A stretch of 64,000 bases of DNA, taken from the NCBI RefSeq assembly GCF_014199525.1, contig NZ_JACHNU010000002.1, positions 354,147 to 418,146 of the forward strand. The letters are read 5' to 3'. Source of the stretch: Conexibacter arvalis (GTDB lineage: Bacteria > Actinomycetota > Thermoleophilia > Solirubrobacterales > Solirubrobacteraceae). The notes under the pieces are model-generated. The model was not told the DNA's origin. It made no database searches and was given only the letters and a program-made list of their open reading frames with translations. Positions 22,427-26,874 of this stretch are shown in pieces. Numbering within the stretch: position 1 is the stretch's first letter; the number at the start of each line of letters is the position of its first letter. Both the position numbers and the translations under genes were made by a program.

Positions 22427-22819
22427 CTACTCGACGACCAGCTCCGCTTCGCTGACCTGGCCGTCGACGATCCGCCAGGCGCGCACGTCCGGCTCCGGGT
22501 CCTTCAGCCCGACGATGATGTACAGCGAGTCGGGATAGAAGGCGAGGTTGATGTCCGTCTGCGACGGCTCGGGCGCGGTGCGCGTGTGCGAGTGGTAGAT
22601 CGCGCCGAGCTCGTGGCCGGCGTCCTCGATCGCGTCGAGGATCTCCAGCTGCTGCTTGCCGTCGATCTCGTAGCGCAGCGGGCTCGCTGCCATGTTCTCG
22701 GCGGGATGGACGGCGACGGCGACGCCGTCGGCGGAGGCGACCATGCCGCAGCACTCGTTCGGCGCTTCGGCACGTGCGTGGGCGACCAGCTGGTCGTAGA
22801 GCTCGCGGGCGATCTTCAT
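22427..22819 (-). CDS. mec: JAMM/MPN metalloprotease of the Mec type
   Basis: This 130-residue zinc metalloprotease has a complete JAMM motif: Glu22 in NECCG, His76-x-His78 in YHSHTRTAPEPSQTD, and Asp89 with the 10-residue spacing H-x-H-(x10)-D. In Mycobacterium the homologous Mec releases cysteine from the C-terminus of the sulfur carrier CysO. In quinolobactin synthesis a related enzyme (QbsD) trims extra residues after the GG of QbsE. The gene lies in the same strand block as cysO, cysM and the E1-rhodanese, so either role fits here. It is cytoplasmic, with no signal peptide. Confidence 0.88.
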   Translation of the reverse strand: MKIARELYDQLVAHARAEAPNECCGMVASADGVAVAVHPAENMAASPLRYEIDGKQQLEILDAIEDAGHELGAIYHSHTRTAPEPSQTDINLAFYPDSLYIIVGLKDPEPDVRAWRIVDGQVSEAELVVE

Positions 22820-22865: not shown

Positions 22866-23075
22866 CTACGCGACGTCGCGGTCGCGCTCGTCCTTGACGG
22901 CCGTCAGCTCGCGCTCGGACTCGTCGTCCTTCGTGACGCCGGAGATCGAGTCCTTGAACTCGCGCATCCCCTTGCCGATCGAGCGACCGGCCTCGGGCAG
23001 CTTCTTCGGGCCAAGGATGATCAGGGCGATGACGAGGACGAGGACGACTTCCATCGGTCCGATCTGGGAGAACAT
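22866..23075 (-). CDS. tatA: Sec-independent protein translocase TatA
   Basis: This 69-residue protein has the short N-terminal transmembrane helix (residues 8-20, VVLVLVIALIIL), the hinge GPKKLPEAGRSIGKG, an amphipathic helix and a charged tail, all typical of TatA. TatA oligomers help folded proteins with twin-arginine signals cross the membrane. The start has a GAAGGAGC ribosome-binding site. Two genes upstream lies a Tat-type lipoprotein, a plausible client. tatC is not in the window. Confidence 0.92.
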   Translation of the reverse strand: MFSQIGPMEVVLVLVIALIILGPKKLPEAGRSIGKGMREFKDSISGVTKDDESERELTAVKDERDRDVA

Positions 23076-23187: not shown

Positions 23188-23775
23188 TCACGGAAGCGCC
23201 GCCTCCCCGCGCTCGAACGCGTCGGGCACGAGCGTCCCGGGCGCATCGCTCAGGAGGCTGCGCAGCGCGACGGCGTGCTGGCCCTCTGCGCCCATGATCT
23301 GCGTCGCCAGCTCGATCAGCGCAGCGTTCTGGAGGTCGCGGACGGCGCCGAGAAAGGTGGTCAGCTGGGCGTCCTCCAGCTCCAGCGCGAAGGCCGCGAT
23401 CGCCGCCGTCGTGCGCAGCCCGCCGAGCGGCGCCCTCAGGCCCAGCTGCGCGCGCCGGCGGGCGAGCTCCGCCTCGCCGCGCGGGGCGGGCGGCGCTCTG
23501 CCGCCGAGCTGCTCGAGCTTGGAGGCGAGCACCTCCGCGTGCTCGCGCTCGTGGTCGCGCACGCGTGCCAGCAGCTCCGGCAGCCGGGGTCGCCCCCGTT
23601 CCGCCGCTCCAGCGGGGACCGCACGGGCCGCGGCGACCGCGACGTCGTAGCTGGCGATCGCGACGCGCTCCAGCAGCAGCGCGCCGGCGACGATGCGGAC
23701 GTCGTCGTCGACTTGCGCGAAGGTCCGCGCCGGGCGCAGCAGCAGGCCGCGACGGCTGACCGCGCCGGCCGTCAT
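23188..23775 (-). CDS. Ferritin-like domain protein
   Basis: This 195-residue protein is a four-helix bundle of the ferritin-like superfamily. It has two pairs of helices with carboxylate/His clusters such as VRDHEREHAEVL and MGAEGQHAVALRSLL. The N-terminus begins MTAGAVSRRGLLLRP, but there is no long hydrophobic segment, so it is probably cytoplasmic. It overlaps the preceding ferritin-like gene by four bases, and the two are probably paralogues acting together. Whether it stores iron or only binds a di-metal site is not known. Confidence 0.72.
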   Translation of the reverse strand: MTAGAVSRRGLLLRPARTFAQVDDDVRIVAGALLLERVAIASYDVAVAAARAVPAGAAERGRPRLPELLARVRDHEREHAEVLASKLEQLGGRAPPAPRGEAELARRRAQLGLRAPLGGLRTTAAIAAFALELEDAQLTTFLGAVRDLQNAALIELATQIMGAEGQHAVALRSLLSDAPGTLVPDAFERGEAALP

Positions 23776-24365
23776 GCGCCGCCCGTGACGAACGGCGTCG
23801 GCGCCGGCCAGCGCCCGAGCCGCAGCCGCAGGACGGCGTCGTGCTCGGCCTCGGTCGTCGCGATCGAGGCGACCGCCTGACGCAGCCGCGAATCGGCGAT
23901 GCGCGGCACCACGCTGCCGTAGACGACGATCGCCTTGCGCTCGACCTGCAGCAGCAGTCTCAGCGTCTCCACCGCGTCGGCGGGCGAGTCGAAGTCATAG
24001 CTCGGCGCCGGCGCGGCCGCGCTCGACCCAAGGTCGGCGACCAGCTCGCGCAGACGCGCGGCGTGGGCCCGCTCCTGCGCGAGGAAGCGCCGCGCGGTGT
24101 CGAGCGCGACGCCCTCGAGCAGCGGCATCGCGGCGGTGTACGCGGCGATCGCGAAATGTTCCGCCGCGAGCGCGCTGTTGAGCAGGTCTGCGTCGCCGCC
24201 GGGGCTCTCGGGCACCGTCTCCGGCACGCCGCCGAGGCGGGCGCCCTCGTCGCGCACGGCGTCGTCTCCCCCGCCGCAGCCGGCGAGGGCGCCGAGCGCC
24301 GGCACCGCGATCGCGCCGGCGCCGATGCCGTGCAGGAAGCCCCGTCGCGTCGGGCCGGCTACCAC
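23772..24365 (-). CDS. Tat-exported ferritin-like lipoprotein
   Basis: This 197-residue protein starts with a twin-arginine signal (TRRGFLHGIGAGAIAV) and a lipobox-like LAGC, so it is likely exported folded and lipid-anchored. The mature part is a ferritin-like four-helix bundle with helices carrying AAEHFAIAAYTAAM, LAQERAHAARLREL, QVERKAIVVY and TTEAEHDAVLRL. Each helix supplies a Glu or His suited to a di-iron site. The GTG start overlaps the end of cysM by seven bases. It lies upstream of tatA in the same gene block, matching its export route. Confidence 0.8.
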   Translation of the reverse strand: MVAGPTRRGFLHGIGAGAIAVPALGALAGCGGGDDAVRDEGARLGGVPETVPESPGGDADLLNSALAAEHFAIAAYTAAMPLLEGVALDTARRFLAQERAHAARLRELVADLGSSAAAPAPSYDFDSPADAVETLRLLLQVERKAIVVYGSVVPRIADSRLRQAVASIATTEAEHDAVLRLRLGRWPAPTPFVTGGA

Positions 24366-25330
24366 CAGACGGTCGAGTCGAGATTCTCGATCTCGTCGAC
24401 CGGCCGGGTGTAGATCCCGGATGAGAGGTACTTCCAGCCGTCGTCGCAGACGATGAAGACGACGTTGCCCTCGTCCAGCTCGTTCGCGATGCGGACGGCG
24501 ACGCGCGCGATCGCGCCCGACGAGACGCCGGCGAAGATGCCTTCCTCGTCGAGCAGCTTGCGCGTCCAGATGATCGCGTCGCGGTTGGTGACGAAGATCT
24601 TCCGGTCGAGCAGCGAGAGGTCGATGATCGGCGGGATGAAGCCGTCGTCGAGCGAGCGCAGGCCCTGGACCGGCTCGCCCTGCATCGGCTCGGCGGCGAC
24701 GATCTTGACGGCGTCGCCGAGCGCCTCCTTGAAGCGGCGGGCGTTGCCCATCAGCGTGCCGCCGGTGCCGAGGCCCGCGACGAAGGCGCTGATCTCGTCG
24801 AGCTCCTCGAGGATCTCCAGCGCCGTGCCGTTGTAGTGGGCGTTCGGGTTGGCGACGTTGCCGTACTGGTACGGCATGTAGTACGAGGGGTCGGACTCGG
24901 CCATCTGAAGCGCCAGCTCGACCGCGCCGTTGGAGCCCTTCGAGCCGTCGGAGTAGACGATCTCGGCGCCGTACATCTCGAGCAGCTGCGTCCGCTCGGG
25001 CGTGACGTTGTCGGGCATCACGACCTTGAGTCTGTAGCCCTTGCGCTTGCAGATCATCGCGAGCGAGATGCCGGTGTTGCCGGAGGTCGGCTCGAGGATC
25101 GTCTGCCCCGGCTTGATCGCGCCTCTCGCCTCGGCGTCCTCGATCAGCGAGCGGGCGACGCGGTCCTTGACCGAGCCGGTGGGGTTCTTGGACTCGAGCT
25201 TGGCCCAGATGCGCACGCCCGGCTTGGGCGAGAGGCGCTTCAGCTCGACGAGCGGCGTGTTGCCGATCGACTGGACGACGTCGCCGTAGCGACCGCCGCA
25301 GGGCTTGTTCTCGAGGCGCTCGGAAGCCAT
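24359..25330 (-). CDS. cysM: CysM-type cysteine synthase (O-phosphoserine sulfhydrylase)
   Basis: This 323-residue PLP enzyme has SIGNTPLVELKRLS, the PLP lysine in NPTGSVKDR, the substrate loop EPTSGNTGISLAM, and the glycine-rich GLGTGGTLMG. Several segments are closer to mycobacterial CysM than to CysK: YQYGNVANPNAHYNGT, LRSLDDGFIPP and GWKYLSSGIYT. Mycobacterial CysM uses O-phosphoserine and thiocarboxylated CysO rather than acetylserine and sulfide. The neighbouring cysO, mec and moeZ-like genes support that route here. The ATG at 25330 starts the family domain. Confidence 0.9.
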   Translation of the reverse strand: MASERLENKPCGGRYGDVVQSIGNTPLVELKRLSPKPGVRIWAKLESKNPTGSVKDRVARSLIEDAEARGAIKPGQTILEPTSGNTGISLAMICKRKGYRLKVVMPDNVTPERTQLLEMYGAEIVYSDGSKGSNGAVELALQMAESDPSYYMPYQYGNVANPNAHYNGTALEILEELDEISAFVAGLGTGGTLMGNARRFKEALGDAVKIVAAEPMQGEPVQGLRSLDDGFIPPIIDLSLLDRKIFVTNRDAIIWTRKLLDEEGIFAGVSSGAIARVAVRIANELDEGNVVFIVCDDGWKYLSSGIYTRPVDEIENLDSTVWW

Positions 25331-25406: not shown

Positions 25407-25682
25407 TCAGCGGCCCCCGGCCATCGCCGGCAGGATGACGATCGTGTCGCTCTCGCCGACGGTCGTCTGCAGACCGTCGAGCACCCGCACGTCCTCGTCG
25501 TTGAGATAGACGTTGACGTAGCGGTTGAGCTCGCCGTCGGCCGAGAACAGCTGCGACTGCGTCTGCGGATGCTCGGTCGCGAGCGCCTTCAGCACCTCGC
25601 CGACGTTGGAGCCGGCGGCGCTGACCTGCTTCTCGCCGCCGACGGACGGGCGCAGGACCGGTGGGATCTTCACGGTTGCCAT
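25407..25682 (-). CDS. cysO: CysO-like sulfur-carrier protein (ThiS/MoaD fold) ending GGR
   Basis: This 91-residue ubiquitin-fold protein opens with ATVKIPPVLRPSVGG and ends with TIVILPAMAGGR. Sulfur carriers are adenylated and thiocarboxylated on a C-terminal Gly-Gly; here one arginine follows the diglycine (G89-G90-R91). It must either be removed before activation, possibly by the JAMM protease three kilobases downstream, or make the protein non-canonical. The gene lies 10 bases after the E1-rhodanese gene and 76 before cysM, matching the CysO-CysM cysteine pathway. Confidence 0.87.
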   Translation of the reverse strand: MATVKIPPVLRPSVGGEKQVSAAGSNVGEVLKALATEHPQTQSQLFSADGELNRYVNVYLNDEDVRVLDGLQTTVGESDTIVILPAMAGGR

Positions 25683-25692
25683 GTTCGGGACC

Positions 25693-26874
25693 CTAGCCGG
25701 CCGCGGCGCAGAACGCCTCGTAATCGGGGAAGACGCCCATCTCCTCGTCGCTGATCGACTCGGGGTCGCGCGAGCAGATCGGGCAGTCGGGATCGCGCCG
25801 CACCTTCAGCTCGGTGAAGGTCGCGCCGAGCGCCTCGTACAGCAGCAGACGGCCGACCAGCGGCTCGCCCTCGCCCAGGATCAGCTTGACGACCTCGGTC
25901 GCCTGCAGCATGCCCATCGTGCCCGGCAGAACGCCGAGGACGCCGTTGGCGCCGCAGGAGGGCGCCAGCTCGGCCGGCGGCGGCGTCGGGTAGAGGCAGC
26001 GGTAGCACGGCCCGTCGTAGGGCTTGAAGACCGACAGCTGGCCGTCGAAGCCGAGGATCGACGCCGACACGACCGGGATCCCCAGGCGCACCGAGACGTC
26101 GTTGATCAGGTAGCGCGTCGGGAAGTTGTCGAGGCCGTCGACGATGATGTCGTAGCCCTCGACGATCTCCATCACGTTGGAGGCGTCGAGCCGCACCGGG
26201 TACTTGACGACTCTCACGTCGCGGTTGAGGTTGGCGATCGTCGCCTCGGCCGAGTCGACCTTCGGCTCGCCGACCCGCTCCTGGGTGTGGATCACCTGGC
26301 GCTGGAGGTTCGACAGGTCGACCGTGTCGTTGTCGACGAGGCCGAGCGTGCCGACGCCGGCCGCGGCGAGGTAGAGCGCGGTCGGGGCGCCGAGGCCGCC
26401 GGCGCCGAGCAGCAGCACTCTCGCGTCGAGCAGCTTCAGCTGGCCCTCGAGGCCGACCTCGGGCAGCAGCAGGTGGCGCGAGTAGCGGTCGCGCTGCTCG
26501 GCGCTCAGCGTGCGCGGGACCTCGACGTCGTAGCCGCGGTCCTTCCACAGCGTGATGCCGCCGGTCATCGACTCGACGTTCGTGTAGCCAAGGTCCTCGG
26601 TCAGCGTGCGCGCGGCGTACGCGGAACGGTTGCCGGAGGCGCAGTAGAGGACGATGTGGGCGTCGCGGTCGGGCACGATGCCCTCGATGCGAGACTCGAG
26701 GTAGGCGCGGGGAACGTGTCTCGCGCCGGGGATGTGCGCGACGGAGAACTCCTCGTTCTCGCGCACGTCCACGATGACTGCGCCGTTGCCGAGCTGCTCG
26801 TGCACGGCCGCAGGATCCACCTCGTGGATCTGGCTCTTGATCTGACGGAGCAGCTCCGCTCCGGACGGACTCAT
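25693..26874 (-). CDS. moeZ: Rhodanese-E1 fusion (MoeZ/MoeB-like sulfurtransferase-adenylyltransferase)
   Basis: This 393-residue protein should activate the sulfur carrier and load it with sulfur. Residues 15-115 are a rhodanese domain with the persulfide Cys78 in YCASGNRSA. Residues 125-390 are a ThiF/MoeB E1-like domain with the ATP loop GAGGLGAP (158-165), DNDTVDLSNLQRQ, and zinc cysteines C290/C293 and C364/C367. Mycobacterial MoeZ has the domains in the opposite order, E1 first. The start has a GGAG ribosome-binding site. It is first in the cysO-cysM-mec block and so probably its E1 and sulfur donor. Confidence 0.9.
   Translation of the reverse strand: MSPSGAELLRQIKSQIHEVDPAAVHEQLGNGAVIVDVRENEEFSVAHIPGARHVPRAYLESRIEGIVPDRDAHIVLYCASGNRSAYAARTLTEDLGYTNVESMTGGITLWKDRGYDVEVPRTLSAEQRDRYSRHLLLPEVGLEGQLKLLDARVLLLGAGGLGAPTALYLAAAGVGTLGLVDNDTVDLSNLQRQVIHTQERVGEPKVDSAEATIANLNRDVRVVKYPVRLDASNVMEIVEGYDIIVDGLDNFPTRYLINDVSVRLGIPVVSASILGFDGQLSVFKPYDGPCYRCLYPTPPPAELAPSCGANGVLGVLPGTMGMLQATEVVKLILGEGEPLVGRLLLYEALGATFTELKVRRDPDCPICSRDPESISDEEMGVFPDYEAFCAAAG

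What the first reader, a model, noticed from the sequence alone, without database searches (positions are those of the whole stretch)
25407..25682. Sulfur carrier ends in Gly-Gly-Arg rather than Gly-Gly
The codons before the TGA read A-G-G-R. ThiS/MoaD/CysO carriers need a free C-terminal diglycine. QbsE in quinolobactin synthesis carries extra residues that a JAMM protease (QbsD) removes, and a JAMM protease lies in this cluster. The arginine could be a one-residue proprotein cap giving a regulated activation step.
Basis: partly seen in the sequence, partly recalled or inferred. Interest (0 to 1): 0.6.

Follow-up and report, generated by a model that had tools for sequence, protein, structure and literature searches.

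The report
Capped CysO sulfur carrier with JAMM protease
A small protein that carries sulfur for making cysteine is encoded with one extra amino acid after its essential Gly-Gly end; most of its relatives across the Actinomycetota carry similar short, ever-changing extra ends that a neighbouring metal-dependent protease probably trims off, which is a known kind of maturation step and nothing special to this arginine.

Summary
On the minus strand, 25682-25407 encodes a 91-aa CysO-like sulfur carrier ending ...LPAMAGGR (Conexibacter, Solirubrobacterales). The arginine is not a lone variant. Of 143 distinct orthologues next to moeZ and/or a JAMM gene across the Actinomycetota, 125 carry residues after the invariant GG, 97 of them only one or two (R, A, S, C, AR, SR, GA...), and 18 end in GG. 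The cap changes at least 102 times on a 143-tip tree while AGG never varies; Pro is never the first cap residue. Stand-alone ThiS proteins end exactly in GG (11/11), and a paralogue linked to threonine synthase is capped in only 9 of 32. An intact JAMM lies in the same cluster, with CysM of the O-phosphoserine type and an E1. One relative has CysO fused in frame to the E1 with the JAMM next door.

Best explanation: the Mec-type JAMM, which releases cysteine from CysO-Cys, also trims the encoded cap, so the cap is short and cleavable but free in sequence. Capped carriers with JAMM proteases are already known (QbsE/QbsD; PtmS2/PtmS3 with PtmS1). A regulatory role for this arginine is not supported. 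New member of a known kind; modest interest. No cleavage was tested here.

The parts
25407..25682 (-). CysO-like ThiS/MoaD-family sulfur carrier, 91 aa, ends ...AMAGG-Arg-stop
   Evidence: orthologues
25407..25412 (-). Arg cap codon (CGC, 25412-25410) and TGA stop (25409-25407)
   Evidence: sequence; same end in the relative G031
25693..26874 (-). E1-like adenylyltransferase/sulfurtransferase (N-terminal rhodanese + ThiF domain), directly upstream of cysO
   Evidence: ThiF 9.6e-81, rhodanese 1.4e-20; NF006444 above cut-off; adjacent in all orthologous loci of the family that were read
24359..25330 (-). CysM-type cysteine synthase, closest solved relative M. tuberculosis CysM (O-phosphoserine sulfhydrylase)
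   Evidence: 3dki_A, 2.3e-95, aligned to the C-terminal Trp
22427..22819 (-). JAMM/Prok-JAB protease of Mec type, motif E...HSHTRTAPEPSQTD intact: probable cap protease
   Evidence: 4.7e-23; 5lda/5ld9 JAMM1; motif
23188..24365 (-). two ferritin-like genes between cysM and the JAMM; present near only some orthologues, probably not part of the carrier pathway

Best explanation
The gene encodes the CysO sulfur carrier of the CysO/CysM cysteine pathway, made as a proprotein with a one-residue cap. The E1 (MoeZ-type) can only adenylate a free C-terminal glycine, so the cap must come off first. The clustered Mec-type JAMM metalloprotease most likely cuts between Gly90 and Arg91. This is the same bond position at which Mec hydrolyses the CysO-Cys adduct after CysM has made cysteine, so one enzyme would both mature the carrier and recycle it every cycle. 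Because the JAMM accepts most residues after GG, the encoded end is free to drift in sequence and by a residue or two in length; the arginine is one of many tolerated caps. Shown: the sequence, the gene cluster, the JAMM motif, and the conserved presence but variable sequence of the cap. Inferred: cleavage by this JAMM, the need for it, and drift as the cause.
For: 125 of 143 distinct moeZ- and/or JAMM-linked CysO orthologues are capped, 92 of 101 of the JAMM-linked ones. Carriers away from the JAMM are much less often capped: thrC-linked paralogue 9/32 (p=6e-11), stand-alone ThiS 0/11 (p=2e-9). Within genomes, cysO capped with the thrC-linked paralogue ending in GG occurs in 17 genomes and the reverse in none (hand count). 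Cap: about 102 string changes on a 143-tip tree, with AGG invariant. No Pro as first cap residue in 130 caps (13 expected from downstream sequence, p=8e-7; 0 of 65 gains on the tree, p=9e-4), though Pro occurs later in caps. Ends are kept short: 80% have 0-2 residues after GG against 4% expected from the downstream stop frequency. JAMM motif complete in 100 of 104 linked genes, the other 4 cut off before the motif; JAMM homologue in 71/71 good genomes of the family. In-frame CysO-MoeZ fusion with adjacent JAMM in L257. OPS-type CysM. Literature: Mec+ releases cysteine from CysO-Cys (PMC3227635); capped PtmS2 (MV) and PtmS3 (C) with JAMM PtmS1 needed in vivo (PMC6006322); DRJAMM frees the C-terminal Gly of a MoaD-MoaE fusion (PMC8832034).
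Against: No cleavage was observed. A general carboxypeptidase could remove one residue. 18 orthologues do without a cap, so it is dispensable for the pathway. The thrC-linked paralogue is capped at times without a linked JAMM (a JAMM elsewhere in the genome could act). The Pro deficit is partly expected if caps arise by single changes of stop codons, and the sequences are related, so p-values are descriptive. The linkage groups depend on how far each stretch was fetched: some moeZ-linked loci have the JAMM beyond it.
Confidence: 0.8

Rival explanations
1. The cap is a selected gate: uncapping by the JAMM is a regulated switch that limits when CysO enters sulfur transfer.
For: Caps are kept in most orthologues and are short; a JAMM is nearly always present.
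Against: Residue and length change between sister species, about 102 changes on 143 tips; about 12 losses against 3 gains inferred. The JAMM is in the same cluster and needed for cysteine release in any case, so it would be expected to uncap at once.
Confidence: 0.08
2. The cap is removed by an unrelated housekeeping carboxypeptidase, the JAMM acting only on CysO-Cys.
For: A single residue is an easy exopeptidase substrate; some thrC-linked carriers without a linked JAMM are capped.
Against: Longer caps (13-53 residues) and a CysO-MoeZ fusion exist, which an exopeptidase would hardly trim neatly to GG; stand-alone ThiS in the same genomes was never capped (0/11), though a general peptidase should let it be.
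Confidence: 0.08
3. The capped protein works unprocessed, or the cap marks a carrier that is no longer a thiocarboxylate carrier.
For: None found; only that cleavage is unobserved.
Against: GG is invariant in 143/143 and the E1 and OPS-type CysM are kept beside it; deletion, insertion and substitution mutants at the GG of E. coli MoaD show that the terminal Gly is needed (as cited in PMC4326299).
Confidence: 0.03

Closest known systems
Mycobacterium tuberculosis CysO-CysM-Mec-MoeZ cysteine pathway
   Same: Carrier homologous to CysO (3dwg_C), CysM closest to the O-phosphoserine sulfhydrylase, JAMM and E1/rhodanese in the cluster
   Different: M. tuberculosis CysO has no cap (in one search its last residue, 93, aligns with Gly90 here); here the rhodanese domain is N-terminal to the ThiF domain, whereas MoeZR has it C-terminal (PMC3227635)
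QbsE/QbsD and PtmS2, PtmS3/PtmS1 capped sulfur carriers with JAMM protease
   Same: Residues after GG (MV in PtmS2, one Cys in PtmS3) and a JAMM gene; JAMM loss abolishes thioplatensimycin (PMC6006322)
   Different: Those are studied in siderophore or antibiotic sulfur supply; here the neighbours are those of cysteine synthesis, and the cap is Arg
HcyS-Ala/HcyD of Wolinella succinogenes (from memory, not tested)
   Same: One-residue cap removed by a JAMM in an amino-acid pathway
   Different: Methionine rather than cysteine synthesis
MoaD-MoaE fusions cut by JAMM (DRJAMM) and MoaX of M. tuberculosis
   Same: Cleavage after GG frees the carrier's C-terminus (PMC8832034, PMC4326299)
   Different: A whole domain, not a short cap, follows the GG; the MoaX protease is not identified

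Membership tests
CysO sulfur carrier | ThiS/MoaD fold with C-terminal GG | tested here: met
   Pfam ThiS 8.3e-14; best solved match Mtb CysO 2e-21; GG present but followed by Arg
CysO sulfur carrier | Clustered with OPS-type CysM, MoeZ-type E1 and Mec JAMM | tested here: met
   window genes and synteny in relatives
CysO sulfur carrier | Thiocarboxylate formation and donation to CysM | not testable with these tools
   needs biochemistry
Mec-type JAMM protease | E...H[S/T]Hx7SxxD zinc motif | tested here: met
   HSHTRTAPEPSQTD in the window, 100/104 linked genes
Capped carrier matured by JAMM (QbsE/PtmS type) | Extra residues after GG, general among orthologues | tested here: met
   125/143
Capped carrier matured by JAMM (QbsE/PtmS type) | JAMM gene in the same cluster | tested here: met
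   window 22427-22819; 101 loci
Capped carrier matured by JAMM (QbsE/PtmS type) | JAMM removes the cap to expose GG | not testable with these tools
   reported for QbsD (cited in PMC6006322), not for this protein
Regulated proprotein switch | Cap sequence conserved | tested here: not met
   about 102 cap changes on the 143-tip tree
Regulated proprotein switch | Uncapping under regulation | not testable with these tools
   needs experiments in cells

The most novel reading that the evidence does not exclude
Across the Actinomycetota the cysteine carrier is kept as a short proprotein because uncapping, by the same JAMM that releases cysteine, is used as a gate or quality check on carrier entry, with only the cleavability and length of the cap, not its sequence, under selection.
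Probability: 0.1. Interest if true: 0.5.

Novelty: new member of a known kind. Interest (0 to 1): 0.3.

Why it matters
It extends a maturation step known from a few siderophore and antibiotic clusters to a primary cysteine pathway across a phylum, and suggests one JAMM doing two jobs on one carrier. It warns annotators and biochemists that such CysO proteins should be expressed as the GG form or with their JAMM. Natural caps that equal the reaction product (AGG-Cys ends, as in L063 and L091) and a CysO-E1 fusion are ready test substrates.

Tried and rejected
Lone variant or sequencing error: rejected, the end is shared with relatives and caps are general. A conserved Arg signal: rejected, the cap residue varies. 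A test of capped carriers in genomes that lack any JAMM could not be made with power: nearly all genomes with a CysO carrier have one. The idea that the genome has only one Prok-JAB: not so, a second one lies in an E1-E2/JAB defence-type operon, so linkage, not uniqueness, points to the Mec gene. No structure prediction was run: complexes cannot be modelled with the tool and the folds were clear from sequence. Look-ups of the 2014 Nature paper on co-opted sulfur carriers and of HcyS/HcyD papers failed: not in the library.

Full report
Observation. The ORF at 25407-25682 is on the minus strand and encodes a 91-residue ThiS/MoaD-family protein that ends P-A-M-A-G-G-R-stop. Its nearest solved relatives are M. 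tuberculosis CysO and the CysO-like 4n6e_B; the alignments stop at Gly90. The window's genus is most likely Conexibacter: genomes of the same genus match records titled Conexibacter in contig length and position. The gene order on the minus strand is moeZ-type E1 (26874-25693), cysO, cysM (25330-24359), two ferritin-like genes, tatA (about 23075-22869), JAMM (22819-22427), DUF2007-like gene.

Not a lone variant. I collected orthologues from 146 genomes of the family, 296 genomes drawn from the phylum, and 80 named contigs, and read each carrier to its stop. Of 143 distinct carriers that lie beside moeZ and/or a JAMM, 125 have residues after GG; 97 of these have one or two. Eighteen end exactly in GG. 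Within the genus the caps are R (three genomes, the window's included), A (three) and SR (one). Long caps also occur (13, 15, 21, 42, 53 residues), and in L257 the carrier runs in frame through GG into the E1 as one 485-residue protein, with a JAMM gene about 470 bases away.

Internal controls. In the same genomes a CysO-like paralogue lies beside threonine synthase, away from the JAMM; 23 of 32 end exactly in GG. Stand-alone ThiS ends exactly in GG in 11 of 11. Fisher tests against the CysO group give 6e-11 and 2e-9; the sequences are related, so these are descriptive. Where I could pair both carriers in a genome, CysO was capped and the paralogue not in 17, the reverse in none (counted by hand).

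How the cap evolves. On a maximum-likelihood tree of the 143 core sequences, with the caps left out, the cap string needs about 102 changes and its first residue about 75, while the A-G-G before it never changes. Under midpoint rooting, loss of the cap is inferred about 12 times and gain 3. The first cap residue is mostly Ala, Arg, Ser, Gly, Cys, Thr, Glu or Gln, and never Pro (0 of 130, 13 expected from in-frame downstream sequence; 0 of 65 inferred gains, p=9e-4), although Pro occurs further on. A caveat is that Pro is not one base change away from a stop codon; Ala is not either, yet is commonest. The downstream stop frequency would leave only 4% of ends within two residues of GG; 80% are. 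So a cap is tolerated if short and cleavable, but its sequence is free.

The protease. The JAMM has the full zinc motif, as do 100 of 104 linked homologues; the other four are cut off before the motif in the stretches read. A homologue is found in 71 of 71 well-assembled genomes of the family. The genome has one other Prok-JAB gene, in an operon with an E1-E2 protein and a metallo-beta-lactamase-like protein that resembles anti-phage defence operons; it is a less likely partner. The CysM beside the carrier matches M. tuberculosis O-phosphoserine sulfhydrylase best, through to its C-terminal Trp.

Mechanism. In M. tuberculosis MoeZR thiocarboxylates CysO, CysM uses O-phosphoserine to make the CysO-cysteine adduct, and Mec+ hydrolyses the adduct to release cysteine and CysO (PMC3227635). 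Removing an encoded residue after Gly-Gly is the same reaction at the same bond position. I therefore infer that this JAMM both matures and recycles the carrier. That would remove selection for a stop codon right after GG and explain drift. A few orthologues end in a single Cys (L063, L091), so that the gene itself encodes what the pathway makes as CysO-Cys. Cleavage was not tested; this is inference from anatomy, comparison and literature.

What is known. A 2018 study of Streptomyces platensis describes capped carriers PtmS2 (MV) and PtmS3 (one Cys), says that capped carriers typically need a protease such as QbsD, and shows that loss of the JAMM PtmS1 abolishes thioplatensimycin formation (PMC6006322). 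JAB cleavage of ThiS/MoaD fusions was predicted in 2006 (PMC1779556) and shown for a MoaD-MoaE fusion in Deinococcus (PMC8832034). HcyS-Ala/HcyD in Wolinella is a one-residue precedent that I recall but could not find in the library. So the finding is a new member of a known kind. What is added here is the phylum-wide extent, the drift of the cap, the contrast with unlinked carriers, and the CysO-E1 fusion. I did not find a published survey of this, but most subscription papers are not in the library.

Noticed in passing
L257 (G210:C1:138500-148800), minus strand from 5302 of the locus: In-frame fusion of a CysO-like carrier to a MoeZ-type E1 with rhodanese (485 aa) with a JAMM gene about 470 bases away; relatives have the two genes apart. 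It would need cutting after GG.
   Followed up: partly
L265:3535-4242 (own genome G000:C1:1121534): MoaD-MoaE fusion with GG inside the chain (VPPVSGG|AGGEG...; Pfam ThiS and MoaE), also seen in several relatives; a likely further client of a JAMM.
   Followed up: partly
L300:486-1301 (G307:C4:140885): ThiS-ThiG fusion in a relative of the same order (Pfam ThiS and ThiG in one frame); a second genome (L301) has a frame that stays open past ThiS too.
   Followed up: partly
L263:2377-5637 (own genome G000:C5, about 205876-209136): Operon of a metallo-beta-lactamase-like protein, an E1-E2 protein and a JAB, resembling ubiquitin-like anti-phage defence operons.
   Followed up: partly
L036:4979-6641 (own genome G000:C4): Threonine synthase gene directly followed by a CysO-like carrier ending in exact GG; the pairing is conserved in the family, and its role is unknown to me.
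   Followed up: partly
window 22866-23075: A tatA-like gene (TatA_B_E 4.2e-19) lies between the ferritin-like genes and the JAMM on the minus strand.
   Followed up: no
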